A stretch of DNA of 64,000 nt from Solwaraspora sp. WMMD791. GTDB taxonomy: Bacteria; Actinomycetota; Actinomycetes; Mycobacteriales; Micromonosporaceae. A program made the translations under genes and the position numbers. Within the stretch, counting starts at the first letter, position 1; the number at the start of each line of letters is the position of its first letter. Of this stretch, positions 17,550 through 43,237 are shown piece after piece. The DNA is taken from contig NZ_CP120737.1 in NCBI RefSeq assembly GCF_029581195.1, positions 1,488,001 to 1,552,000 on the forward strand, in the 5' to 3' direction. Below the pieces are notes generated by a model, which saw only the letters and a list, made by a program, of their open reading frames with translations, had not been told where the DNA came from and ran no database searches.

Positions 17550-18035
17550 TCAGCCGGCCGGTACGGCGTGCACCGCGCGCAACGCCAGGGCGGCGTCGAG
17601 GACGGCGACCATCGACGACCATCCTTTGTCTTCGGCCGAGCCGGGCAGTCCGGCCCGGTCGCGGGCCTGCGCGATGGTCTCGACGGTGAGCACCCCGTGG
17701 CCGACCGGTGTGGCTTCGTCCAGTGACACCCGGGTCAGCCCGTCGGTGACCGACCGGCACACGTAGTCGAAGTGCGCGGTGGCGCCGCGTACCACGACGC
17801 CGAGGGCGACCACCGCGTCACAGCGACGGGCCAGCGCCTGGGCGAGCACCGGCAGTTCGACCGAGCCGGCCACCCGGGCGACCTGCACCCCGGCGACGCC
17901 GCAGGCCTCGGCGGCGGCCAGGGCCCGGCCGAGCATGACGTCGACCAGGTCGGCGTGCCAGCGGGCGGCGACGACGCCGACCCGTAGTCCGGCGGCGTCG
18001 ACGCGGATCACGCCTGGTTCGCCGAATCCCGCCAT
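17550..18035 (-). CDS. ribH: 6,7-dimethyl-8-ribityllumazine synthase
   Basis: A 161-residue lumazine synthase that condenses DHBP with the aminouracil intermediate. Motifs are VGVVAARWHADLVDVML, VAGSVELPVLAQALA, VVALGVVVRGATAHFDYVC and GVLTVETIAQARDRAG. The ATG overlaps the ribBA stop by one base (TAATG), with GGAGG 9 nt upstream. It is the last riboflavin gene of the operon. In place of the usual GGTPHFDYV it has GATAHFDYV, a minor substitution. Confidence 0.96.
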   Translation of the reverse strand: MAGFGEPGVIRVDAAGLRVGVVAARWHADLVDVMLGRALAAAEACGVAGVQVARVAGSVELPVLAQALARRCDAVVALGVVVRGATAHFDYVCRSVTDGLTRVSLDEATPVGHGVLTVETIAQARDRAGLPGSAEDKGWSSMVAVLDAALALRAVHAVPAG

Positions 18036-19282
18036 TACGCCCTACCTCCGGACAGTTCGCCGACGGGGTCGAGCCCGTCGAGCAGGTGGCCCATCCGGTC
18101 GCGCTTGGTCCGCAGGTAGCGCAGGTTCTCCGGGTGGGGGTGGATGGTCAGCGGTTCCCGGCCGACGACGGTCAGCCCGTACCCGACCAGCCCGGAGAGC
18201 TTGTCCGGGTTGTTGGTGAGCAGCCGGATCGACCGCACACCGAGGTCGTGCAGGATCTGCGAGCCGGTGCCGTAGTCGCGGGCGTCGGCGGGCAGCCCGA
18301 GCTCCAGGTTGGCGTCGACGGTGTCACGGCCCTGGTCCTGCAGCTGGTAGGCGCGCAGTTTGTGGGCCAGTCCGATCCCGCGTCCCTCGTGGCCGCGCAG
18401 GTAGAGCACCACGCCGCGGCCTTCGCTGGCGACCCGGCCCAGCGCGGCGTCCAGCTGCGGGCCGCAGTCGCAGCGCAGCGAGCCGAACACGTCACCGGTG
18501 AGGCATTCGGAGTGCACCCGGACCAGCACGTCGCGGCCGTCGTCGATGTCGCCGAGGACCAGGGCGAGGTGTTCGGCGGGGTCGTGGGCGACCCGGTAGC
18601 CGTAGGCGCGGAACACCCCGTACGCCGTCGGTAGCCGGACCTGCGCGACCCGCTCGACGTGGGTCTCGGTCCGTCGCCGGTGGGCGATCAGGTCGGCGAT
18701 GGTGATCAGGGTGAGCCCGTGGTCGGCGGAGAACTTCTCCAGGTCGGGCAGGCGCATCATGGTGCCGTCGTCGTTGACCAGTTCGCAGAGCACCCCGGCG
18801 GGGTGCAGGCCGGCAAGGCGGGCCAGGTCGACGGCGGCCTCGGTGTGGCCGGGCCGGTGCAGGACACCGCCGGCGCGGGCCCGCAGGGGCACGACGTGGC
18901 CGGGTCGGGCCAGGTCGGCCGGGCTGGTGGCCGGGTCGGCGAGCAGCCGCAGGGTGTGTGCCCGGTCGGCTGCGGAGATGCCGGTGCTGACCCCTTCTCG
19001 GGCGTCGACGGTCACCGTGTACGCGGTGCCGCGCCGGTCCTGGTTGGTGTGGTACATCGGCGGCAGTTCGAGCCGGTCGCAGTCGGCTTCGGGCAGCGGC
19101 GCGCAGATGTAGCCGGAGGTGTAGCGCACCATGAAGGCGACGAGTTCGGCGGTGGCGTGTTCGGCGGCGAAGATCAGATCGCCTTCGTTCTCCCGGTCGG
19201 CGTCGTCGACCACCACCACCGCCCGGCCGGCGGCCAGGTCGTCGAGGGCCTGTTCGACGGTGCCGAACCCGGCGGCGGTCAC
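18035..19282 (-). CDS. ribBA: Bifunctional DHBP synthase / GTP cyclohydrolase II
   Basis: A 415-residue two-domain enzyme. The N-terminal RibB domain (about 1-205) makes DHBP from ribulose 5-phosphate and shows [33 protein letters not shown] and [16 protein letters not shown]. The C-terminal RibA domain (about 210-415) opens GTP and has the zinc site [16 protein letters not shown] and [18 protein letters not shown]. The GTG start overlaps the riboflavin synthase stop by 4 nt (GTGA). Confidence 0.97.
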
Positions 19283-19950
19283 GGGCGGACCCCGGTGGTG
19301 GGTGCCGGCTGGCGCAGTTGTTTCGCCACGTACTTCGCGATCACGTCGACCTCCAGGTTGACCAGGGACCCGACCGGTTTGCGGCCGAGTGTGGTGAGTT
19401 GCAGGGTGGTGGGGATCAGTCCGACGCTGAACCAGCCGGCGTCGTCGCCCGTCCCGGCGGGACCGTCGGCGGGTTCGCCGTCGGCGGGTTCGCCGTCGGA
19501 CACCTCCATCACGGTCAACGAGACGCCGTCGACAGCGATCGAACCTTTTTCCACGATGTAGCGGCCCAGGCCGGCGGGGAGGCTGAACCGCACCTGCTCC
19601 CACCGGTCGCCGGGGACGCGCTCGACGATGGTGGCGACGCCGTCGACGTGGCCCTGCACCAGGTGTCCGCCGAGACGGGTGGCGAGGGTGGCGGCGCGTT
19701 CCAGGTTGACCGGATCGCCGGGGCGCAGCCCGCCCAGCGCGCTGCGGTCGAAGGTCTCCTTCATGACGTCCACGGTGAACCGTGCGCCGTCGACGGCGAC
19801 GACGGTCAGGCAGACCCCGTCGACGGCGATCGAGTCGCCGTGGCGGGCGTCGGCGGCGACCAGCGGGCCGTGGATCGTGAGCACGCCGCTGTCGCCGTGC
19901 CAGTCCAGGGTGCCGGCCTCGCCGCGCTCCTCGATGATGCCGGTGAACAT
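19279..19950 (-). CDS. ribE: Riboflavin synthase
   Basis: A 223-residue protein with two lumazine-binding barrels. It begins [13 protein letters not shown] and carries [13 protein letters not shown] (first barrel) and [15 protein letters not shown] (second barrel). It dismutates two lumazines to riboflavin. Between them, [21 protein letters not shown] is an inserted low-complexity loop from a 15-bp repeat, unusual for the family but in a surface position. It lies 4 nt after ribD. Confidence 0.95.
19470..19500. repeat. 15-bp repeat inside riboflavin synthase
   Basis: GGCGGGTTCGCCGTC recurs in tandem and encodes the repeated pentapeptide DGEPA in the second barrel. The period is a multiple of three, so the frame is kept. 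Confidence 0.75.
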
Positions 19951-33698: not shown

Positions 33699-33847
33699 CC
33701 GTCCGGCGGAACGACATCCCGCAGGCCGGATGTGGCGCTCCGCTGTCCATCTCCGACCATGTGCCCGGCTCGCCAGGACGGTGGCGGCCGGGCACGACAA
33801 TCAGCTCGACCTCTGTGGAGCCGGCGGAGCGGCACTCGCCAGCGTGG

Positions 33848-34414
33848 TCACCGTTCGTACCCGGACCTCTGTTCCAGGGCCGCACCCGCAGCTGACCCGA
33901 AACGCTGGTTGATCTTGGAACCGCTGATCGTGTCCTGCAGGATCCGGTGCAGCGCCTCGACCATCGTCTTGCGCTGTTCATCGTTGAGCTGGCTGCCGAT
34001 CGACTCGTTCAGCGCGTGGTTGATCGCGTTGACGTCATCCAGCATCTTGGCGCCCAGCAAGGTCAGCCGCAGGTGCACGACGCGCCGGTCGACCTGACCC
34101 GCTTCCCGCTCGACCAGGCCCCGCTTGAACAGGGTCTCGACGATCCGGCTCGGGCTTCCCGTCTCGCACACGATGTACCGCCCGAGTGCGGCGAGGGTCA
34201 GCGGCTCACGCTCCGCGAGCACCGAGAGGATCTCCGCCTGCGCCGGCGTCAACCCCAGTGGGCGCAGTGCCTGCGCCAGGAGGCGGTTGCCTTCCCGTTG
34301 CGCGGCAAGGATCAGATACCGCAGTTCGGCGATCGGATGCTCGTCCGGGTTGCCGCTGAACCTGGCGTCGCCGTCGACCCCGCCAGGGTCTTCGCTACGT
34401 AGAGTAGCCGTCAT
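33848..34414 (-). CDS. MarR-family regulator of the RibB/acyl cluster
   Basis: A 188-residue winged-helix protein. The core is LRYLILAAQREGNRLLAQALRPLGLTPAQAEILSVL, the recognition region is LGRYIVCETGSPSRIVETLFKRGLVERE and the wing is DRRVVHLRLTLLG. It is divergent from the RibB-like operon, with a motif-rich spacer that probably holds its operators. I choose ATG 34414, two codons after a GTG at 34420. An upstream ATG at 34546 would run through the operator sequences and is less likely. Confidence 0.88.
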   Translation of the reverse strand: MTATLRSEDPGGVDGDARFSGNPDEHPIAELRYLILAAQREGNRLLAQALRPLGLTPAQAEILSVLAEREPLTLAALGRYIVCETGSPSRIVETLFKRGLVEREAGQVDRRVVHLRLTLLGAKMLDDVNAINHALNESIGSQLNDEQRKTMVEALHRILQDTISGSKINQRFGSAAGAALEQRSGYER

Positions 34415-34495
34415 TTTCACTGTCCCAGCACCTTCCCTCGGTGGTAGTCGGGCCCGTCCCCGGCACGGTTCGGCCGAGATCCCCCATGTCGCCCT

Positions 34496-34634
34496 CATCG
34501 ATGTTACGTCATCGATTTTGATTTGTCCCATCTCCGCCAAGATCACAGTAACACAAAGTTAGTTGTTGCAACATCGATGTCGTGCGGTTGATAATATGAC
34601 ATCGATGGCGCAACATCGATGTGGCAGCATCGAT
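34496..34634. promoter_or_regulatory. Array of six ATCGAT-core operator-like motifs
   Basis: CATCGAT starts at 34496, 34510, 34572, 34600, 34614 and 34628. The steps are 14, 62, 28, 14 and 14 bp, so all but one are multiples of 14. The copies at 34571-34580 and 34613-34622 are perfect ACATCGATGT palindromes. The array fills the spacer between the divergent MarR and RibB-like genes and overlaps the predicted promoter. It is the most likely MarR binding region. Confidence 0.75.
34566..34595 (+). promoter_or_regulatory. Putative promoter of the RibB-like operon
   Basis: TTGCAA (34566-34571), an 18-bp spacer and GATAAT (34590-34595) lie among the ATCGAT motifs, which would place them under repressor control. 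The transcript would start near 34602, leaving a leader of about 75 nt. Confidence 0.45.
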
Positions 34635-34677
34635 CTACCCCCCTCGCGTCATCCACCACGTGACAGGAGAGTTCCCG

Positions 34678-35370
34678 ATGACCCTGCAGATGCTCCCCCC
34701 CGCCGCCCAGGACACGCTCGTCTCGCTGCTCCCGACCCCCGAGAGGATCGAGCTCCAGGAGGCCGAGGAGGCCATCGCCGCGATCGGACGCGGTGAGCTC
34801 GTCGTCGTCGTCGACGACGAGAACCGCGAGAACGAGGGCGACCTGATCGTCGCGGCCGAGTACGCCGACGCGGACGCCATCAACTTCATGATCACTCACG
34901 GTCGCGGGCTGGTCTGCCTGGCGATCACCGCCGCCCGCGCCGCCGAGCTGGACCTGCCACCGATGGTCGAGCGCAACGAGGACCACCACGGCACCGCCTT
35001 CACCGTCAGCGTCGACGGGACACCCGAGCACGGCGTCACCACCGGCATCTCCGCCTACGAGCGGTCGCGTACCGTGCAGTTGGTCCTCGACGGCAAGGCC
35101 AGCGACCTCGCCCGTCCCGGCCACATCTTCCCCCTGGTCGCCCGGGACGGTGGGGTCCTCGAACGGCCCGGCCACACCGAGGCCTCGGTGGACCTGGCCC
35201 GGCTGGCCGGGCTGAAGCCCGCCGGCGTGATCGTCGAGATCATCCGCCCGGACGGGACGATGGCCCGGCTGCCCGACCTGGTGCGTTTCAGCCGCGAGCA
35301 CAACCTGGTCCTGACCAGCATCGAGAAGCTGCGGGAGTACTCGGCGCGGCGTCAGGGCGGCAGGCCGTGA
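34678..35370 (+). CDS. ribB: Stand-alone DHBP synthase (RibB-like)
   Basis: A 230-residue 3,4-dihydroxy-2-butanone-4-phosphate synthase making a C4 keto-phosphate and formate from ribulose 5-phosphate. Active-site elements are complete: [20 protein letters not shown] (acidic Mg site), GVTTGISAYERSRT, ARPGHIFPLVAR and [16 protein letters not shown]. No RibA domain follows. AGGAGAG precedes ATG 34678. The window already has ribBA under an FMN riboswitch, while this copy is under a MarR and heads an acyl-chemistry operon, so it probably supplies DHBP to a different product rather than riboflavin. Confidence 0.92.
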   Translation: MTLQMLPPAAQDTLVSLLPTPERIELQEAEEAIAAIGRGELVVVVDDENRENEGDLIVAAEYADADAINFMITHGRGLVCLAITAARAAELDLPPMVERNEDHHGTAFTVSVDGTPEHGVTTGISAYERSRTVQLVLDGKASDLARPGHIFPLVARDGGVLERPGHTEASVDLARLAGLKPAGVIVEIIRPDGTMARLPDLVRFSREHNLVLTSIEKLREYSARRQGGRP

Positions 35371-36647
35371 ACCTGATCGACCGGGCCTGCGTCGCGGCGA
35401 CGACCGCTGTCACCCGCCGAACGGTCGTGCACCGCCACCTTGCCGCGGTGGAGGGCATCGAGCACGTACCGATGGACCGGCCGTTCATCCTGGCACCCAA
35501 CCACCGCAGCTTCGCCGACCACTTCCTGTTCGAGACGCTGCTCTTCGCGATCCAGGGAAACCGGGCCGCCTTCCTGACCAAGGCGGAGAGCTTCACCCCG
35601 GTGAAACGGATCTGGTTCAACGCGATGGGCGCGGTGCCGGTCGACCGGGCACGACCGGTCCGCGAACTGCTTGCCACAGTGGATGACCTGCTCGACTCCG
35701 GTCGGGTGGTGGTGGTCTACCCGGAGGGGACCCGCAACCCCGACGCGCAGCTGATGGCGTTCAAGGACGGGGCGTTCCGGTTCGCCGAACGCGCCGGCGT
35801 GCCAGTCGTCCCCGCCGCGCTGGTCGGCACCGAACGGATCCTGCCGATCGGTGCCAGCTGGCCACGCGGTCACCGGGCCAGGGTGCATTTCGGGCCGGCG
35901 CTGCACGCCGACATGGCGCTGCCCCGGGCCGCCCGAATCCGCGACCTGGCCGAACGGACCCGGGTGGCGATCGACGGGTTGCTGACCGACGCCACGACGG
36001 CCGCAGCGGCACGGGTCGGGAACACCGATCCGGACACCGCCCACCGACACGTCGTCGCCGCCGGGCGGACGGCACAGCACGCCGAGGCGCTGCTGGAGCG
36101 GTCCCTCAGCGGTACCGACACCACGCCGGCCGCGGTGCGCCACCGGCAGGCCGAACTGCTCTACACGGTCGCCCTACGGACCGATCCGGGATCGCTCGAC
36201 GCCGCTGTCGGGCTGCTGCGGGTGGCCGGGCTCCGCGCGCTCACCGCACCCGCCGCCCACCGGGCCGTACTGCTGCGCCGGGTCCGCGTCGGATGCGAGA
36301 ACGCGCTGGCCCGCGACCCCGACCACCTCACCGCCAACTACCTGCTCGGTCGGTGGCACCTGCTCATCCCGAAGGCCCTGGGCGGCCGGCGGGAACGGGC
36401 GGTACACCACCTCGGCCTGGCACACCGACTCGCGCACGGGGACAACCGCTACGCGATGGCGTACGCCGAAGCCCTGATCGCGGCCGGACGGCCCGACGCG
36501 GCCGTCACCACCCTACGCGGGGTCATCGCCGACCCCGTCACCGACCAGCGCGGCGACCGCCGCCGTGACCGGGCGATCGCGCTCCTGGCGTCGATCACCG
36601 GCGCACCCGCCGAGCGCCGCCCGGTGATGGACCCCCAACCGACCTGA
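35367..36647 (+). CDS. PlsC-type acyltransferase with TPR-like C-terminus
   Basis: A 426-residue protein. The N-terminal glycerol-phosphate acyltransferase-like domain (about 35-210) has the HX4D motif NHRSFAD and VVVYPEGTRNPDAQLMAFKDGAF. It would transfer an acyl chain to a hydroxyl of a phosphorylated polyol at the membrane face. The C-terminal 200 residues are helical and Ala/Arg-rich (HRQAELLYTVALRTDPGSLD, ALARDPDHLTANYLLGRWH, RYAMAYAEALIAAGRPDAA), resembling TPR units. That extension is not normal in PlsC. GTG overlaps the RibB-like stop by 4 nt. Confidence 0.85.
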   Translation: MNLIDRACVAATTAVTRRTVVHRHLAAVEGIEHVPMDRPFILAPNHRSFADHFLFETLLFAIQGNRAAFLTKAESFTPVKRIWFNAMGAVPVDRARPVRELLATVDDLLDSGRVVVVYPEGTRNPDAQLMAFKDGAFRFAERAGVPVVPAALVGTERILPIGASWPRGHRARVHFGPALHADMALPRAARIRDLAERTRVAIDGLLTDATTAAAARVGNTDPDTAHRHVVAAGRTAQHAEALLERSLSGTDTTPAAVRHRQAELLYTVALRTDPGSLDAAVGLLRVAGLRALTAPAAHRAVLLRRVRVGCENALARDPDHLTANYLLGRWHLLIPKALGGRRERAVHHLGLAHRLAHGDNRYAMAYAEALIAAGRPDAAVTTLRGVIADPVTDQRGDRRRDRAIALLASITGAPAERRPVMDPQPT

Positions 36648-36655
36648 GTTTCCGT

Positions 36656-36698
36656 GCGGACGGGTCCGTCCGGGCACGCACCGACCGGACCCGTCCGC
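36656..36698 (+). terminator. 13-bp inverted repeat between acyltransferase and MMPL genes
   Basis: GCGGACGGGTCCG (36656-36668) and CGGACCCGTCCGC (36686-36698) pair perfectly over 13 bp with a 17-nt loop, 8 nt after the acyltransferase stop. There is no U-run, so it may be a partial terminator or an mRNA-processing or stability hairpin within the operon. Confidence 0.5.
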
Positions 36699-36752
36699 CC
36701 ACACCGGACTCCCACCACCCACCGCCCTACCCGACTCCAACAGGGGAAGATC

Positions 36753-39083
36753 ATGAAGAAACTCGCTCGCCTGGCCGTGGAACGCCCCAAGCTCATGGTG
36801 GCGCTGTGGCTGATCGTCATCGCGCTCTCCGTACCGTTCGCCGCCCAGCTCGACGGGGCGCTCAAGGCGGGTGGCTTCTCCGACCCACGAGGTGAGGCCG
36901 CCATCGGTCAGGAGGTCGTCGAGGACGCCTTCCGCGAGGCGCCGAACAGTCTCCTCGTGGTGCTGAGCAGCACCGACCGGGAGGTGTCCGGCGCGGTCGA
37001 CACCGCGCGGGCGGCGGTCGACCGGCCGGGGGTCGCCCAGCTCACCGACTACCGCGACAACCCGGCGTGGCTGTCGGCCGACGGCCGCACCACCTTCATC
37101 CAGGTCGGCTTCACCAGTTCCAACACCGAGGTCCAGAACCTCGTGCCGGACCTGCGCGAGGACGTCGCGGCGGCGGTGGGTGACGGCGTGGACATCAACG
37201 TCACCGGGGCACCCGCGTTGGACTACGCGCTCAACGTACAGTCCAAGGAGGACGTCCTCCGCGCGGAGATGATCGCCTTCCCGGTCCTGTTCGTCGTACT
37301 GTTCCTGGTCTTCCGCTCGGTGGCGGCGATGCTGGTGCCGCTGGTCCTCGCCGGCGTCACCCTCGCGGTCACCAGCGGCCTGGGCTACTTCGTCGCACGC
37401 GGCACCGACCTGTCCATCCTCTACACCAACATCGTGTCGATGATCGGCCTGGCGGTGGCGGTGGACTACTCGCTGTTCATCGTCAAACGCTTCCGGGAGG
37501 AACTGGCCGAGGGACGCACGGTCCCGATGGCGCTGGAGCGCACCCTGACCACGGTCGGCCACTCGGTCATGTTCAGCGGGCTCGCCGTGGTGGTCGCGCT
37601 CTCCGCCCTGTTCATCCCCCGGGCCATGTCGTTCACCAGCATCGCGTTCGGCGGGGTGATGGTCACCCTGGTCGCGATGGCGGTGTCGCTGACCCTGCTC
37701 CCGGCGGTGCTGAGCCTGCTCGGACACCGGATCAACTGGGGCTCGCTGCGGTCGCGGCGGGTCCGGACGGCGACCACCGGCTACCGCTCCACCAGCGTGG
37801 TCTACCGCCGGGCCGGAGTGGTCCTCGCGGCGCTGGTGATCGCCTTCGTCGCACTCGGCCTCCCGGCCACGCAGCTCAACCTGCAGGTTCCGGTCGCCAG
37901 CGCCGACATCCTGCCCGAGGACGACGACGCCCGGCAGGGCATCGAGAAGATCCAGGAGGAGCTGGGTCTACGGGAGATGTTCCCGATCCAGGTGGTGCTC
38001 ACCGCCGAGCCGGGGCAGACCAGCGCAGTGCTCGACTCGGTCGACCGGATCGTCGATCAGGCCAGCGACGACGAGCGTACCGCCGATGTCCGGGCCGTCA
38101 CCACGCTCGGGCTCGCTCCCGACGTGGTACGCCAGGCGACCGTCGGCGACACCGCCGGGCTGCCGGCCGAGGCGGCGACCGTGTTCGGCGCGCTCTGGGT
38201 CGACGACGGCGAGCGGATCGTCACCCGGGTCCTGGTCATCGCCAACGACGACCCCGACACCACCGAAGCGCACGAACTGGTCGAGAACCTCCGTGCGACG
38301 ACCGACTCCCTGGCCGGCGACGGTGTCGACGTACGGGTGACCGGTGCCACCGCCACCGGTGCGGACTTCGACGACCTGGTGACCCGGTCCATCCCGATCG
38401 TGGTCGGCGCGGTCACCCTGGTGACCTTCCTGATCCTGATCCTCGCCTTCCGCTCGGTGATCCTGCCGCTGCTCGCCCTGGCCTTCAACGCCGCCGTGGT
38501 CTGCGCCAGCCTCGGCGCGCTGGCCCTGCTCTCCCGCTTCACCTCCGGCGACACGATCAACAGCGTCACCCCGCTGATGCTCTTCGCCGTGATGTTCGGC
38601 CTGAGCATGGACTACATGGTGATCATGATTTCCCGGATGCGGGAGACCTACGCCGAGGGGTACTCGCACCGCGAAGCGGTCCTCGGTGGCCTGGCCCGCA
38701 CGGCCGGCATGGTCAACGGTGCAGCGGTGATCATGGTCGCGGTCTTCGCCTCGTTCGGCAGCGCCGAGATCAGCATCGTCCGGGAACTCGGCATCACACT
38801 GGCGATCGCGGTGGTCCTCGACGCCATGGTCGTCCGTCGGCTGGTCATGCCGACCACCCTGCTGCTGCTGGGCGACCGGGTCTGGGGCCGTCGGCGGCCG
38901 TCGCCCACCGGCGACACCGGTCAGTCGTCGGCTCACGACGGCGAACCGGGGCAGTCCGACGGTGCGGTGCAGTCCGACGGCGGGGCAGCGCAGTCCGAGG
39001 GCGGGGCGGACGCCGCGGCCGCCACCACCACGGGAAAGGCGGAGGAGGTGTCCGGTGTCCTCGCCGATGCGACGCGCCGGTGA
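36753..39083 (+). CDS. MMPL-family RND lipid exporter
   Basis: A 776-residue inner-membrane transporter with about 11-12 helices in two halves, each with an extracytoplasmic porter loop. The proton-relay motifs are VAVDYSLFIVKRF (first half) and LSMDYMVIMISRM (second half). Members move lipids or glycolipids in actinobacteria. AGGGGAAG precedes ATG 36753. The Gly/Ser/Gln-rich tail after about 705 is disordered. It is inside the cluster and probably exports the acylated product. Confidence 0.92.
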   Translation: MKKLARLAVERPKLMVALWLIVIALSVPFAAQLDGALKAGGFSDPRGEAAIGQEVVEDAFREAPNSLLVVLSSTDREVSGAVDTARAAVDRPGVAQLTDYRDNPAWLSADGRTTFIQVGFTSSNTEVQNLVPDLREDVAAAVGDGVDINVTGAPALDYALNVQSKEDVLRAEMIAFPVLFVVLFLVFRSVAAMLVPLVLAGVTLAVTSGLGYFVARGTDLSILYTNIVSMIGLAVAVDYSLFIVKRFREELAEGRTVPMALERTLTTVGHSVMFSGLAVVVALSALFIPRAMSFTSIAFGGVMVTLVAMAVSLTLLPAVLSLLGHRINWGSLRSRRVRTATTGYRSTSVVYRRAGVVLAALVIAFVALGLPATQLNLQVPVASADILPEDDDARQGIEKIQEELGLREMFPIQVVLTAEPGQTSAVLDSVDRIVDQASDDERTADVRAVTTLGLAPDVVRQATVGDTAGLPAEAATVFGALWVDDGERIVTRVLVIANDDPDTTEAHELVENLRATTDSLAGDGVDVRVTGATATGADFDDLVTRSIPIVVGAVTLVTFLILILAFRSVILPLLALAFNAAVVCASLGALALLSRFTSGDTINSVTPLMLFAVMFGLSMDYMVIMISRMRETYAEGYSHREAVLGGLARTAGMVNGAAVIMVAVFASFGSAEISIVRELGITLAIAVVLDAMVVRRLVMPTTLLLLGDRVWGRRRPSPTGDTGQSSAHDGEPGQSDGAVQSDGGAAQSEGGADAAAATTTGKAEEVSGVLADATRR

Positions 39084-39684
39084 CGCACTCGTGGTCTTCG
39101 ACGGCCAGCGCCGGCTGGTCTGGCGCCGGGACAGCCCGTCCGCCTGGAATCCCGTGGCGCTCTGGCCGAACGAGCAGGAGATCCACACCATCGAACGGCA
39201 CCTGTTGGAGGGGAGGCACCTTCTGGTGATCATCGACAGTGACACCGGGCCGGTTCCCCTGCTGACCGAGGAGGCCGAGGAGATTCCGGTACGGATGCGC
39301 CCGTTCCTCGGCTTCGACGGCGACCTGCCGCACCTGACCATCCCGCTGCTCGACTGGCTGCCGCCGGACCTGCGCAGCCGGGGCCACCGGTTCCAGGAAC
39401 AGACCGCCCGCCGGGTCGCCACCGTCCCGGCACCGCTGCTGCCGGATCTGCTCATCGAGGAGCAGGCGGCCAACTGCCCGGTCCGCTTCGCCCGAAAGAC
39501 CTCCGGACGGGCGCTCAGCGACCACCATTTGACCGCACTGGTCGCCACCGTGTTCGCCGATGTCGGCACCACCGCCGGCATCGATGGAGCCGTCCCCGGT
39601 CCTCGTGACCGGGGCGGCCCCGCCCTCATCTCCCGACCCCGACCCGCCGGGCGGGCCGCTCTCAACACCGGAGCTCTACGATGA
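39055..39684 (+). CDS. Unrecognised protein of the RibB/acyl cluster
   Basis: A 209-residue soluble protein that I do not recognise. It starts at a GTG 6 nt after GGAGGAGG, inside the last 29 nt of the MMPL gene, and ends in an ATGA overlap with the SDR gene, so it is a real operon member. Features: ALVVFDGQRRLVWRRD, LLVIIDSDTGPVPLLTEEAEE, HLTIPLLDWLPPDLRSRGHR and IEEQAANCPVRFARKTSG. The N-terminal part looks beta-rich, and the last 40 residues are Arg/Pro/Gly-rich. No signal peptide or membrane segment. It does not resemble the AfsA hotdog domain. Confidence 0.75.
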   Translation: MSSPMRRAGDALVVFDGQRRLVWRRDSPSAWNPVALWPNEQEIHTIERHLLEGRHLLVIIDSDTGPVPLLTEEAEEIPVRMRPFLGFDGDLPHLTIPLLDWLPPDLRSRGHRFQEQTARRVATVPAPLLPDLLIEEQAANCPVRFARKTSGRALSDHHLTALVATVFADVGTTAGIDGAVPGPRDRGGPALISRPRPAGRAALNTGALR

Positions 39685-40445
39685 CCACCACCGTCCCACC
39701 CCCCGCCGACATCCACACCCCACTGACCGGCCGGGTCGTCGCCATCACCGGGGCGGGCAGAGGACTCGGCCTGTTGACCACGGAGACGCTGCTGAGGCAG
39801 GGAGCGCGCGTCATCGCGAACCACCGCTCCCCCTCGTCGAGTCTGGAGGAGTTCCGCAGAAAGTTCCCCGGGCAGCTGCAACTGGTCCCCGGTGACATCG
39901 GCGAGGAGTCCACGGCGATCGCCCTCGCCGACGCCGCCCGCAACGCCGGCGACCTGCACGTGCTGATCCACAATGCCGGCGTCACCCGGGACCAGCTGCT
40001 GGCACACATGCCGGTGGAGGACTGGGACGAGGTACAGCGGGTGAACCTGCGCGGTGGCTTTCTCGCCACCAAGCACGCGGTGCGGATCATGCTACGCCGG
40101 CGGTACGGCCGGATCGTCTACATTTCATCGATCGCGGCGGTGATGGGCAACACCGGCCAGGCGAACTACGCCGCGTCAAAGGCGGGGCTGCACGGTCTGG
40201 CGCGTAGCGTGGCTCAGGAGTACGCCTCGTACAACATCCGGAGCACGGTGCTCGCCGTCGGCGTGCTGGACGTGGGACTCGGTGCGGCGATGAAGCCCAA
40301 CACCCAACGCCGCAAGGTCGACCGGTCCCTGCTCGGCCTGATCGACGGTGCCTCGGTGGCGGAGACCCTCGCCTTCCTCGCCGGGCCGAAGGCGGACTTC
40401 ATCAACTCGGAGATCATCCGACTCGACGGTGGAGTGAGGTACTGA
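39681..40445 (+). CDS. FabG-like short-chain dehydrogenase/reductase
   Basis: A 254-residue NAD(P)-dependent SDR. The nucleotide site is AITGAGRGLGLLT, then HNAGVTRD, and the catalytic Ser-Tyr-Lys set is in VYISSIAAVMGNTGQANYAASKAGLHG. It ends IIRLDGGVRY as in 3-oxoacyl-ACP reductases. It overlaps both neighbours. It could reduce a beta-ketoacyl-ACP or the ketone of a DHBP-derived moiety. Confidence 0.9.
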   Translation: MTTTVPPPADIHTPLTGRVVAITGAGRGLGLLTTETLLRQGARVIANHRSPSSSLEEFRRKFPGQLQLVPGDIGEESTAIALADAARNAGDLHVLIHNAGVTRDQLLAHMPVEDWDEVQRVNLRGGFLATKHAVRIMLRRRYGRIVYISSIAAVMGNTGQANYAASKAGLHGLARSVAQEYASYNIRSTVLAVGVLDVGLGAAMKPNTQRRKVDRSLLGLIDGASVAETLAFLAGPKADFINSEIIRLDGGVRY

Positions 40446-40900
40446 TGAACGAACAGACCGCAAGTCGCCTGATCGGCGCAGCCGTGGACCAGGTACGCGG
40501 CGTGCTCCTGGAACCCCTGGCCCTGGCCGACTGGAATCCCGCCATCCTCTCCATCACCGGCCCGACGCAGGCACAGATCGCGACCCGGTACCCCATCGTG
40601 GCCAAGGGCGGCCTGCGGGGCACGTTCCACTACTCGGCCATCGACGACCTGCGCATCCTGACCACGATCAAGGTGACCGGGTTGGAGGAACAGGGGTGGT
40701 GGAACCTCGAACCACGGGGCGACACGACGCTTGTCGAGCATGGCTTCTCCCACCGGGGCGCGCTCGCGTTGCTGCTCTCCTCGGCTTTCCAGGGCGTGGC
40801 CGAGCTGCGGCTGGACCGGCTCTCCACCCGTAGCCGCCGGCCACCGGCCAGTTCCGGGCAGCCGCCAACGCCGCCCGTACCCCCGATGGAGTCCGCATGA
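40445..40900 (+). CDS. SRPBCC/START-like protein, possible cyclase
   Basis: A 151-residue protein with a short helix-grip pattern: VRGVLLEPLALADWNPAILSI, RGTFHYSAIDDLRILTTIKV, WWNLEPRGDTTLVEHGFSHRG and ALLLSSAFQGVAELRLDRL. This is the layout of SRPBCC polyketide cyclase/dehydrase-like proteins. The Pro/Ser-rich tail is disordered. It starts with TGATG coupling to the SDR gene and stops in ATGA with fabH. In this context a cyclase, dehydratase or lipid-binding role is inferred. Confidence 0.72.
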   Translation: MNEQTASRLIGAAVDQVRGVLLEPLALADWNPAILSITGPTQAQIATRYPIVAKGGLRGTFHYSAIDDLRILTTIKVTGLEEQGWWNLEPRGDTTLVEHGFSHRGALALLLSSAFQGVAELRLDRLSTRSRRPPASSGQPPTPPVPPMESA

Positions 40901-41901
40901 GCACTCGGATCCGTACCGCGACGGGCACCCGGCACACCCGGATCCTCGGGGTGGGCGCCTACCGTCCGGCACGAGTGGTCACCAACCACGAGATCGCATC
41001 CCGGATCGACTCCAGCGACGAGTGGATCAGCAGCCGCACCGGGATCCGGACCCGGCGCTGGGCCGGGCCGGACGAGACCCTGACCGAGATGGGCGCGGCG
41101 GCAGCAGGCAAGGCGATCGCCCACGCGGGTCTGTCGCCGGGCCAGATCGACGCGGTGCTGGTGGCCACCATCACCCACTTCAAACAGACGCCTGCGGCGG
41201 CGACCACGATCGGCCACCGCGTCGGCGCCGACGCCGCCATGGCGCTCGACATATCCGCCGCCTGCGCCGGTTTCAGCACGGCCCTCGCTCTCGCCTCGGA
41301 CCTGGTCCGCGCCGGCAGCGCCGGGCATGTGCTGGTCATCGGCGTGGAGCGGCTCAGCGACCTGCTGAACCACGACGACCGGGGCACCGCGTTCCTGTTC
41401 GGCGACGGGGCCGGTGCGGTCGTCGTCGGCCCCGCCGAGACACCTGGCATCGGACCGGTGGCGTGGGGTGCGGACGGCAGCCAGTCCGACATCATCACGC
41501 AGAGTGTGTCCTGGCAGGAGTTGCGGCACGACCGGGAGGTCACGTTCCCGTTCGTGCAGATGGAAGGCCAGGCTGTCTACCGGTGGGCTTCCCGGGCCGT
41601 CGCCCAGGTGGCCCGGACCGCACTCGACCTGGCGGGGATCACCGGCGGGCAGCTCGACGCCTTCATCCCGCACCAGGCCAACCTCCGCATCACCGACGCC
41701 CTGGTCAAAGCCCTCGACCTGCCCACCAGCGTCGCCGTCGCACGGGACATCGTGGACGCCGGCAACACGTCCGCAGCGTCGATTCCCCTGGCGATGGACC
41801 AGATGCTCGCCAGCGGCGAGGTGAACAGCGGGGACACCGCCCTGCTGCTCGGCTTCGGCGCCGGTCTCGCGTACGCCAGCCAGGTCGTCACGCTGCCCTG
41901 A
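40897..41901 (+). CDS. fabH: Beta-ketoacyl-ACP synthase III (FabH-type)
   Basis: A 334-residue thiolase-fold KAS III. The full Cys-His-Asn triad is present: Cys123 in DISAACAGFSTAL, His in FIPHQANLRI (near 255) and Asn in DAGNTSAASIPLA (near 285). DEWISSRTGIRTRRW is the substrate-side signature. It condenses acyl-CoA with malonyl-ACP to start a chain, or in secondary metabolism joins acyl units. No KAS II partner is nearby. Its own ACP is 90 nt downstream. Confidence 0.93.
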   Translation: MSTRIRTATGTRHTRILGVGAYRPARVVTNHEIASRIDSSDEWISSRTGIRTRRWAGPDETLTEMGAAAAGKAIAHAGLSPGQIDAVLVATITHFKQTPAAATTIGHRVGADAAMALDISAACAGFSTALALASDLVRAGSAGHVLVIGVERLSDLLNHDDRGTAFLFGDGAGAVVVGPAETPGIGPVAWGADGSQSDIITQSVSWQELRHDREVTFPFVQMEGQAVYRWASRAVAQVARTALDLAGITGGQLDAFIPHQANLRITDALVKALDLPTSVAVARDIVDAGNTSAASIPLAMDQMLASGEVNSGDTALLLGFGAGLAYASQVVTLP

Positions 41902-41991
41902 GCCCCGGTCCCCCTTACCCCACCCGACCACCCGGTTTTCGAGCCATCGCCACCTTCAACCCCCTCTTCAGTTCAGAGACAGGAGCAAGCC

Positions 41992-42249
41992 GTGAGCACC
42001 AGCACCCTGACCGCCATCGCCGAGATCGTCAGCGAGATCTCCGGAGTGCCCGCCGAGGACGTGCAGCTGGGCAGGAAGCTCAGCCAGGACCTCGGGATCG
42101 ACTCGCTGTCCATGGTCGAGATCGCCGTCGCCCTGGAGGAGCGGTTCGGCATCGAGGTCTCCGACGACCAGATCAAGGATCTCGTCACCGTGGCCGACGC
42201 GGTCGTCTACGTCGAAGCGCGCGGCGGCCGGATCCCGGCCGACGCCTAG
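41992..42249 (+). CDS. Acyl carrier protein
   Basis: An 85-residue ACP with DLGIDSLSMVEIAVALEE. Ser38 is the phosphopantetheine site. Helices II-IV follow the usual acidic pattern. The GTG at 41992 has AGGAG 8 nt upstream. It is the last gene of the RibB/acyl operon, before a strong terminator, and presumably carries the chain made by the KAS III. Confidence 0.95.
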   Translation: MSTSTLTAIAEIVSEISGVPAEDVQLGRKLSQDLGIDSLSMVEIAVALEERFGIEVSDDQIKDLVTVADAVVYVEARGGRIPADA

Positions 42250-42333
42250 GTCCTCCCGATACTCACCGTCGGTAGGCCCATCAGCCATCCCACTGCTGCA
42301 CCGGGCCTACCAGACCCTGATCCGCCTGGACGC

Positions 42334-42370
42334 GAGGGCGCCCGCCGGCACACCGCCGACGGGCGCCCTC
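42334..42370. terminator. Terminator between ACP and aldo/keto reductase genes
   Basis: GAGGGCGCCCG (42334-42344) and CGGGCGCCCTC (42360-42370) form a perfect 11-bp stem with a 15-nt loop that can pair internally. It lies between convergent genes and ends both units. Confidence 0.75.
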
Positions 42371-42376
42371 GGCTGG

Positions 42377-43237
42377 TCAGGCCTGGTCGAGTCGGGCCAG
42401 GTGTGCGGCCGACAGTTCGAGGTCGGCCGCCGCGACAGAGTCACGGATCGTCTCCGGGCGCGACGACCCGGGGATCGGGATCACGACCGGCGCCTTTGCC
42501 AGCATCCAGGCCAGGCAGACCTGTTGCGGGCTGACCCCGTACTCCTTGGCGACCTGCGCGAACGCCGCGAACCGCGACCCCAGGTCGGCGGCGCTGGAGA
42601 TGCCACCGAGCGGGCTCCACGGCAGGAACGCGATGCCGAGTTCGGCGCACAGCCGCAGTTCCGGTTCGCTGGAGCGGAAGGCCGGGGAGAACTGATTCTG
42701 TACGCTGACCAGCCGCCCGCCGAGGATGTCGTTGGCCAGCCGGATCTGCTCCGGGTTGGCGTTGGAGATGCCGGCGAGGCGGATCTTCCCGGCGTCGAGG
42801 AGGTCACGGATCGCGCCGATCGAATCCGCGTACGGCACGGTGGGGTCGGGCCGGTGGAACTGATAGAGGCCGATCGCCTCGACGCCGAGCCGTTTCAGCG
42901 ACGCCTCGCAGGCGCTCTTCAGATACTCCGGCGAGCCGTTCTGCGTCCACGAGCCGTCGCCCGGCCGCAGGTGACCGCCCTTCGTGGCGATCAGCACGTC
43001 TGAGGTGTCGCCGCCGTAGGTCGCCACGGCGCGGGCGATCAGCGACTCGTTGTGTCCGACGTCGTTGGCGTACAGGTGGTAGGCGTCGGCGGTGTCGATC
43101 AGGGTGACACCGGCGTCCAGCGCGGCGTGGATCGTGGCGATCGACCGCTGCTCGTCGGGCCGGCCCTCGATCGACATCGGCATTCCGCCGAGGCCGATCG
43201 CGCCGACGCCGACCTCACCGATGTGGCGGGTGTGCAT
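42377..43237 (-). CDS. Aldo/keto reductase
   Basis: A 286-residue NADPH-dependent AKR barrel. It has GLGGMPMSIEG, LIDTADAYHLYANDVGHNES (Asp/Tyr catalytic pair), LIATKGGHLRPGDGSW (Lys), GLYQFHRPDP (His) and IPIPGSSRPETI for cofactor. AGGAGGAG precedes ATG 43237. It is divergent from the LysR gene, which probably regulates it. Confidence 0.92.
   Translation of the reverse strand: MHTRHIGEVGVGAIGLGGMPMSIEGRPDEQRSIATIHAALDAGVTLIDTADAYHLYANDVGHNESLIARAVATYGGDTSDVLIATKGGHLRPGDGSWTQNGSPEYLKSACEASLKRLGVEAIGLYQFHRPDPTVPYADSIGAIRDLLDAGKIRLAGISNANPEQIRLANDILGGRLVSVQNQFSPAFRSSEPELRLCAELGIAFLPWSPLGGISSAADLGSRFAAFAQVAKEYGVSPQQVCLAWMLAKAPVVIPIPGSSRPETIRDSVAAADLELSAAHLARLDQA

What the first reader, a model, noticed from the sequence alone, without database searches (positions are those of the whole stretch)
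33848..42249. MarR-controlled RibB/PlsC/MMPL/SDR/SRPBCC/FabH/ACP cluster: candidate new metabolite pathway
A DHBP synthase outside the riboflavin operon heads an apparent operon with KAS III, ACP, FabG-like SDR, a possible cyclase, a PlsC acyltransferase and an MMPL exporter. Seen: most junctions overlap by 1-29 nt, the active-site motifs are intact, and a strong terminator closes the set. Known: DHBP is a C4 keto-phosphate made from ribulose 5-phosphate. Inferred: a fatty or ketoacyl chain is joined to the C4 unit, analogous to AfsA joining ketoacyl and DHAP but without AfsA, giving a furanone, butanolide or acyl-tetritol lipid that is exported. I know of no described pathway with this gene set.
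Basis: partly seen in the sequence, partly recalled or inferred. Interest (0 to 1): 0.9.

Follow-up and report, generated by a model that had tools for sequence, protein, structure and literature searches.

The report
Conserved RibB–acyltransferase lipid-pathway operon
An actinobacterium carries a second copy of a vitamin-B2 enzyme inside a compact, separately regulated operon that recurs in other actinobacteria, apparently to build and export an unknown fatty molecule made on a four-carbon sugar-phosphate that normally goes into vitamin B2.

Summary
The operon is real and conserved, with nine genes rather than eight: MarR(-), then RibB, PlsC, MMPL, an orphan protein HYP (no Pfam, NCBIfam or PHROGs hit, no PDB fold match), SDR, SRPBCC, KAS III and ACP. 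Its RibB is not the riboflavin enzyme: an intact RibBA lies 15 kb away. A scan seeded with PlsC found 14 full-length relatives; 13 have RibB next to PlsC, and those 13 genomes each carry two DHBP synthases. Cassette RibBs form one clade (100/99) apart from RibBA. RibB and PlsC overlap by 4-8 nt in 15 of 15 cassettes. A 14-bp-period array of ACATCGATGT-like sites sits before ribB and, in 8 of 8 Streptomyces-type loci, also before the unlinked MMPL gene, tying the exporter to the regulon. Gene sets are nested around MarR-RibB-PlsC-MMPL. Best reading (inferred): PlsC, an LPA-acyltransferase fold with a TPR tail, acylates L-DHBP, whose C3 hydroxyl matches the sn-2 position of glycerol 3-phosphate; KAS III/ACP supply a chain in fuller versions; SDR, HYP and SRPBCC modify or cyclise it; MMPL exports it. 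The product is unknown. Main rival: RibB as a self-resistance copy. My ten literature searches found no described pathway with this set.

The parts
33848..34414 (-). MarR-family regulator, divergent from the operon; invariant Cys (C83) in the ..CE[ST].SPSR stretch
   Evidence: PF01047; 46-52% identical to 12 of 14 cassette MarRs, 37% in L028 and L029
34495..34636 (.). operator-like array: ACATCGATGT-like 10-mers (<=2 mismatches) at 34495, 34509 and 34571, 34599, 34613, 34627 (multiples of 14 bp within each of two blocks)
   Evidence: in the 6.93-Mb genome the 14-bp-spaced pair with <=1 mismatch occurs at 3 places, all here
34566..34595 (+). promoter-like TTGCAA-18-GATAAT inside the array
   Evidence: only sigma-70-type match in 33700-42500; shuffles mean 0.4
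34678..35370 (+). cassette RibB (stand-alone DHBP synthase)
   Evidence: PF00926; own clade 100/99; only 53-55% identical to this genome's RibBA domain
35367..36647 (+). PlsC-type acyltransferase with C-terminal TPR-like superhelix
   Evidence: PF01553; AF2 best model pLDDT 86.2; Foldseek: T. maritima PlsC 5kym E 7.5e-8, TPR proteins from E 4.9e-4
36753..39083 (+). MMPL-family exporter (ATG that relatives align to; upstream GTG 36654 possible)
   Evidence: PF03176; 42-64% identical to 11 other MMPLs
39055..39684 (+).
   Evidence: no Pfam/NCBIfam/PHROGs hit; AF2 pLDDT 83.7; no PDB fold match at E<=0.001
39681..40445 (+). FabG-like SDR
   Evidence: PF00106/PF13561; below the FabG equivalog cut-off, 194 against 298 bits
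40445..40900 (+). SRPBCC / polyketide-cyclase-like protein
   Evidence: PF10604; aligned in 11 loci incl. window
40897..41901 (+). beta-ketoacyl-ACP synthase III; nearest solved relative 1mzj
   Evidence: TIGR00747 over cut-off; 1mzj E 6e-104
41992..42249 (+). acyl carrier protein
   Evidence: PF00550
42250..42400 (+). GC-rich hairpins after ACP, possible terminator
   Evidence: -85.9 kcal/mol, z -5.4; no T run found
18035..19603 (-). housekeeping RibBA (context, not part of the cassette)
   Evidence: NF006803 equivalog over cut-off

Best explanation
[quoted passage not shown] Shown: the gene set, its conservation, a separate RibB clade, an intact-looking housekeeping RibBA, RibB-PlsC gene overlap, and a shared operator-like array at ribB and MMPL. 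Inferred: RibB makes L-DHBP; PlsC-TPR transfers an acyl chain to its C3 hydroxyl. That -CH(OH)-CH2-OPO3 end has, by my stereochemical reasoning, the same spatial arrangement as sn-glycerol 3-phosphate, so an LPA-acyltransferase could accept it. In the fuller versions KAS III and ACP (plus FabF in some Streptomyces) supply a special, possibly beta-keto, chain. SDR, HYP and SRPBCC reduce or cyclise the adduct; with a beta-ketoacyl ester an intramolecular aldol would give a 3-acyl-4-methyl-5-(phosphoryloxymethyl)butenolide, akin to the AfsA type but reached without AfsA. MMPL exports the product; MarR senses the product, a precursor or an electrophile. Likelihoods: dedicated pathway using the RibB product about 0.8; acyl-DHBP as core about 0.55; butenolide as end product about 0.3.
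For: PlsC-seeded scan: 13 of 14 full-length relatives have MarR<>RibB-PlsC. Two DHBP synthases in 13 of 13 of those genomes, one in the genome without a cassette RibB. RibB tree: 15 cassette and 16 housekeeping rows split by one 100/99 branch. Overlap RibB-PlsC in 15 of 15. Array: the two best places of each whole locus are before ribB and before MMPL in 8 of 8 Streptomyces-type loci that hold MMPL (scores 29-34 of 40; maxima of 10 shuffles per locus 22-26). PlsC fold. Nested gene sets, smallest = MarR, RibB, PlsC, MMPL. dN/dS 0.04-0.47 for RibB, PlsC, HYP, SDR, SRPBCC and KAS III in the pairs computed. L-DHBP stereochemistry from PMC12268802 passages.
Against: No product or enzyme activity is known. 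No phosphatase is in the window's set. L031 has long PlsC, HYP and MMPL without RibB, so PlsC-type enzymes may use other acceptors. HYP-SDR also occurs without RibB: beside phosphonate genes (L012-L014) and beside FabF and KAS III (L017). No array stands at the ribB promoter of L028 and L029 or in L031, and it is weak in L019 (25 of 40). SDR could simply be a ketoacyl-ACP reductase. Array score does not prove that this MarR binds it.
Confidence: 0.55

Rival explanations
1. RibB is a self-resistance copy: the operon makes a RibB inhibitor (or a DHBP mimic) and the spare RibB keeps riboflavin synthesis running.
For: Precedents: the flavophos cluster carries a spare lumazine synthase that gives resistance (PMC12871164 passages), and phosphonothrixin inhibits DHBP synthase (PMC12268802 passages). 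RibB duplicated in 13 of 13 cassette genomes. HYP-SDR also sits in phosphonate-type clusters.
Against: RibB overlaps PlsC in 15 of 15 and stays in the smallest version, where among the nine cassette genes only MarR, PlsC and MMPL accompany it. 47 columns incl. the motif residues are invariant in all 31 RibB domains and six separate the two groups by my criterion. PEP mutase and phosphonopyruvate decarboxylase relatives were not found in the window or the 15 cassette loci. None of this excludes it: resistant copies usually stay active.
Confidence: 0.2
2. RibB only boosts riboflavin or flavin cofactor supply for neighbouring enzymes.
For: RibB catalyses a riboflavin step.
Against: Relatives of the window's RibD, RibE, GTP cyclohydrolase II part and RibH were not found in the 15 cassette loci; none of the window's cassette proteins matched a flavoenzyme family in the rows shown; intact-looking RibBA 15 kb away; separate clade.
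Confidence: 0.06
3. The product is a reduced, uncyclised phospholipid: 3-O-acyl-DHBP reduced by SDR to an acyl-deoxytetritol phosphate, an exported lysophosphatidate analogue.
For: Of the cassette genes L028/L029 have only MarR, RibB, PlsC and MMPL; Glycomyces L026 and MAG L027 add HYP, SDR and SRPBCC without KAS III; no phosphatase in the window's set.
Against: KAS III and ACP in the fuller versions suggest a special acyl chain; SDR is FabG-like.
Confidence: 0.25
4. An AfsA/AvrD-type butenolide pathway with the synthase encoded elsewhere.
For: AfsA homologues sit beside two cassettes, L009 and L018 (PF03756).
Against: No AfsA hit in the own genome nor in the genome of L022, which has the full cassette; no AvrD hit among the ten scanned window proteins.
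Confidence: 0.06

Closest known systems
AfsA gamma-butyrolactone / butenolide pathways (A-factor, gladiostatin)
   Same: Proposed logic: a beta-ketoacyl chain joined to a small keto-phosphate with ring closure; AfsA joins DHAP and beta-ketothioesters (PMC7756379, passages seen)
   Different: C4 DHBP instead of C3 DHAP; LPA-acyltransferase instead of AfsA; MMPL export; MarR regulator. Chemistry here is inferred
Methylenomycin (MmyD) and syringolide (AvrD) pathways
   Same: A beta-ketoacyl-ACP and a pentose-derived unit; MmyD proposed to condense acetoacetyl-MmyA with a pentulose (PMC12593393, passages seen)
   Different: No AvrD-like protein in the set; pentose phosphate would first be cut to C4 by RibB
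Flavophos and phosphonothrixin
   Same: Natural products aimed at the DHBP branch of riboflavin synthesis; spare lumazine synthase as immunity in flavophos (PMC12871164 and PMC12268802, passages seen)
   Different: Those are phosphonates; no relatives of the two phosphonate proteins tested lie in the window or cassette loci; here the spare enzyme is coupled to an acyltransferase
PlsC, 1-acylglycerol-3-phosphate acyltransferase (5kym)
   Same: N-terminal fold (Foldseek E 7.5e-8) and NHx4D/E and EGTR motifs
   Different: About 220-residue TPR-like C-terminal superhelix; lies in a RibB operon

Membership tests
DHBP synthase (RibB) | full domain with motif residues conserved | tested here: met
   PF00926 1-191/191; 16 columns identical in 16 of 16 rows; solved relatives, best E 1e-61
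DHBP synthase (RibB) | turns ribulose 5-phosphate into DHBP | not testable with these tools
   needs assay
riboflavin operon member | clusters with other rib genes or is the only DHBP synthase | tested here: not met
   second DHBP synthase is RibBA; window RibD/E/A/H relatives absent from 15 cassette loci
AfsA butenolide/GBL pathway | AfsA domain PF03756 | tested here: not met
   0 in own genome (whose 14 control genomes also gave 0); positive control 3 of 4 Streptomyces genomes
AvrD/MmyD butenolide pathway | AvrD-like synthase in the cluster | tested here: not met
   no AvrD hit among 10 window proteins at E<=0.1; rest of the genome not searched
LPA acyltransferase (PlsC) | fold and HX4D / EGTR motifs | tested here: met
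   rows L026 and L027 read HX4E
LPA acyltransferase (PlsC) | acylates 1-acylglycerol 3-phosphate | not testable with these tools
   needs assay
self-resistance duplicate | spare target enzyme confers resistance to the product | not testable with these tools
   duplication shown; resistance not testable
MarR-controlled regulon | divergent MarR with shared repeated sites at target promoters | tested here: met
   for the Streptomyces-type, Glycomyces-type and window loci, not for L028/L029; binding itself not tested

The most novel reading that the evidence does not exclude
A previously undescribed class of bacterial natural product or signal: acyl-DHBP lipids, closing in the fuller clusters to 4-methyl-butenolides, in which a riboflavin enzyme is a dedicated precursor supplier and an LPA-acyltransferase-TPR protein replaces AfsA/AvrD as the condensing enzyme, with an orphan-fold partner (HYP) and a MarR receptor that reads a 14-bp-phased operator array.
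Probability: 0.35. Interest if true: 0.9.

Novelty: categorically new. Interest (0 to 1): 0.74.

Why it matters
If right, DHBP, known to me only as a riboflavin intermediate, is also a building block of specialised lipids, and LPA-acyltransferases can serve as condensing enzymes in small-molecule pathways. The operator array gives a handle for genome mining, and the locus is small enough (8.4 kb) to express whole. It would also help to assign a function to an orphan protein family (HYP) that recurs in phosphonate-type and other acyl-chain clusters.

Tried and rejected
AfsA or AvrD synthase hidden in the set: not found. HYP as a known fold: the profile search of PDB sequences gave nothing credible (best E 0.097), Foldseek no match at E<=0.001; the second structural aligner was unavailable. 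RibB variant making deoxyxylulose phosphate (E. coli G108S/D113G, PMC3424233 passages): the glycine of the TTG motif is kept in all 31 domains; numbering against E. coli is recalled, and at the D113-like place the window row reads E. Viral contigs: none. Rows dropped before counts: of 22 loci, eight (L032-L039) were short generic acyltransferase matches and were left out. L019 and L021 end at contig edges and cannot show later genes; no MMPL was seen in the parts held. L010 and L026 (Glycomyces, G150), and L011 and L027 (G162), are the same places and are counted once. Bias: the seed alignment A2 came from loci first found through HYP and already holding RibB, so the scan favours the cassette clade. 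Unseeded views are less one-sided: 6 of 300 same-family genomes have HYP (self, 2 with RibB cassettes, 3 without), 2 of 396 (self and one without RibB; only 8 candidates per genome were scored). Own genus: 1 of 7 genomes has a second RibB. The HYP-SDR overlap of L027 printed (26 nt) used a mistyped start; the GTG checked gives 17 nt; all other starts and stops in that table were clean. The same start entered the SDR row of L026/L027 (in frame, three codons too many). Literature: ten searches of an open-access library listed no paper recognisable as describing this gene set; subscription papers, MIBiG and antiSMASH were not available. Seven papers were seen as found passages; two of them, PMC11195616 and PMC12301235, are not used as evidence. 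All other papers were seen only as search listings.
Full report
What is there. The window is 64 kb of a 6.93-Mb single-contig genome, placed in the same family as the Glycomyces genome G150/L026. Between 33848 and 42249 lie a MarR gene on the minus strand and eight plus-strand genes: RibB, PlsC, MMPL, an unnamed protein (here HYP), SDR, SRPBCC, KAS III and ACP. Five of seven junctions overlap. A strong GC-rich structure follows ACP, though without a T run.

Not the riboflavin enzyme. The genome has two DHBP synthase matches, both in this window. The other is a 522-aa RibBA 15 kb away, between frames that read as RibH, RibE and RibD (named by eye), over the equivalog cut-off for the bifunctional enzyme. 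The cassette RibB is 53-55% identical to it but 71-81% (local matches) to 12 of 14 other cassette RibBs and 58% to L028 and L029. The six other genomes of the genus that are held have only one match each.

Conservation. HYP led first to a Streptomyces coelicoflavus plasmid with MarR, RibB, PlsC, HYP, SDR, SRPBCC, KAS III, FabF and MMPL in one stretch, and to two same-family genomes. A scan of the 84,980-species collection with a PlsC alignment gave 22 loci; 14 match PlsC over most of its length. Of these 14, 13 have MarR divergent from RibB-PlsC. Seven (L018, L020, L022-L025, L030) hold MarR, RibB, PlsC, HYP, SDR, SRPBCC, KAS III and MMPL; a recognisable ACP follows KAS III in four of the seven. 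L019 and L021 are cut by contig ends. Glycomyces L026 and MAG L027 show no KAS III or ACP. MAGs L028 and L029 show only MarR, RibB, PlsC and MMPL. L031 has PlsC, HYP and MMPL without RibB or MarR. The sets are thus nested around MarR-RibB-PlsC-MMPL.

Genome and tree tests. DHBP synthase counts are two in 13 of 13 genomes with a cassette RibB and one in the genome of L031. In a maximum-likelihood tree of 31 domains, 15 cassette and 16 housekeeping rows are separated by one branch with support 100/99, and in 100% of 200 bootstrap trees; the program warns that long branches (L028/L029, one housekeeping row) may be misplaced. dN/dS is 0.04-0.47 for RibB, PlsC, HYP, SDR, SRPBCC and KAS III in the pairs computed. 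Relatives of the window's RibD, RibE, RibA part and RibH, and of two phosphonate proteins, were not found in the 15 cassette loci.

Regulation. The 263-bp gap between MarR and RibB holds ACATCGATGT-like 10-mers at 14-bp multiples. Each whole locus was scanned for a four-unit 14-bp array with no position given. In all eight Streptomyces-type loci that also hold MMPL (L009, L018, L020, L022-L025, L030) the two best places are the ribB promoter and a place 125-231 bp before the aligned MMPL start, with scores 29-34 of 40 against maxima of 22-26 in ten shuffles each. Window, L021, L026 and L027 have a clear array at ribB (32-34). L019 is weak (25, shuffle maximum 21); L028 and L029 have none at the promoter and L031 none. 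In the window's genome the paired site with at most one mismatch occurs only here; 38 other places have two or three mismatches. The single promoter-like match of the region lies inside the array. This ties MMPL to the pathway even where it is not in the operon. MarR binding is inferred.

Enzymes. PlsC models as an LPA-acyltransferase (5kym) plus a TPR-like superhelix (best of five models pLDDT 86.2, worst 59.4). KAS III is closest among solved structures to 1mzj, labelled beta-ketoacylsynthase III (that it is the R1128 priming enzyme ZhuH is recalled). HYP has a confident model (pLDDT 83.7) but no sequence or fold relative in the libraries tried. Its gene precedes and overlaps SDR in 12 of 12 cassettes that show both.

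Mechanism. DHBP synthase gives L-DHBP (PMC12268802 passages). Its C3 hydroxyl next to CH2OPO3 corresponds in position and, by CIP reasoning of mine, in handedness to the sn-2 hydroxyl of glycerol 3-phosphate, the site PlsC enzymes acylate. RibB-PlsC gene overlap in 15 of 15 cassettes fits a hand-over. If the chain is beta-keto, as KAS III and ACP allow, ester formation followed by attack on the C2 ketone gives a 4-methyl-butenolide phosphate, parallel to the AfsA reaction with DHAP (PMC7756379 passages) and to the MmyD proposal (PMC12593393 passages). In loci without KAS III, an ordinary acyl chain and an open or reduced lipid is as likely. These steps are inference.

Rivals. Self-resistance is the serious one, because a spare riboflavin enzyme does serve as an immunity gene in flavophos (PMC12871164 passages). 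The smallest cassettes and the tight RibB-PlsC coupling argue against it but do not exclude it. Riboflavin supply and a hidden AfsA are unlikely.

Verdict. I call it categorically new because no family I tested, and no paper listed in ten searches, has RibB and an LPA-acyltransferase as its core; if the chemistry proves AfsA-like, 'new variant' would be fairer.

Noticed in passing
L009:16822-16995; L018, L020, L021, L022, L024, L025, L030 after SRPBCC, before KAS III: A conserved small ORF of about 50-78 aa ending ..E.HI[LV]RG[LV]D* in 8 of the 9 Streptomyces-type loci that hold the stretch (not L023); the motif search found it nowhere else in the window or the loci held. dN/dS 0.34-0.69 in three pairs. 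Function unknown.
   Followed up: partly
L009:18191-18337 and L020 up to 14869: Short ORFs ending TTVxDIMxRIFxAV* where other loci have ACP, perhaps ACP remnants.
   Followed up: partly
L012, L013, L014: HYP-SDR pair (SDR 60-64% identical to the cassette's) with a short PlsC beside PEP mutase-like and phosphonopyruvate decarboxylase/AEP transaminase-like genes in three genomes of one genus: a possible phosphonolipid cluster (only the decarboxylase is over its NCBIfam cut-off, L013 alone scanned).
   Followed up: partly
L017:7980-14634: HYP-SDR between a KAS III-like gene and FabF, with P450-like genes (recognised by eye) in genome G544.
   Followed up: partly
L009:10336-11496 and L018:6275-7249: AfsA/ScbA homologues next to two of the cassettes.
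   Followed up: partly
L026:14816-15952, L027:9590-10537: A PP2C-type protein phosphatase homologue lies downstream of both Glycomyces-type cassettes.
   Followed up: no
window MarR, residue C83: One cysteine is invariant in 15 of 15 cassette MarRs, in the ..CE[ST]..SPSR stretch; a possible thiol or metal sensor.
   Followed up: no
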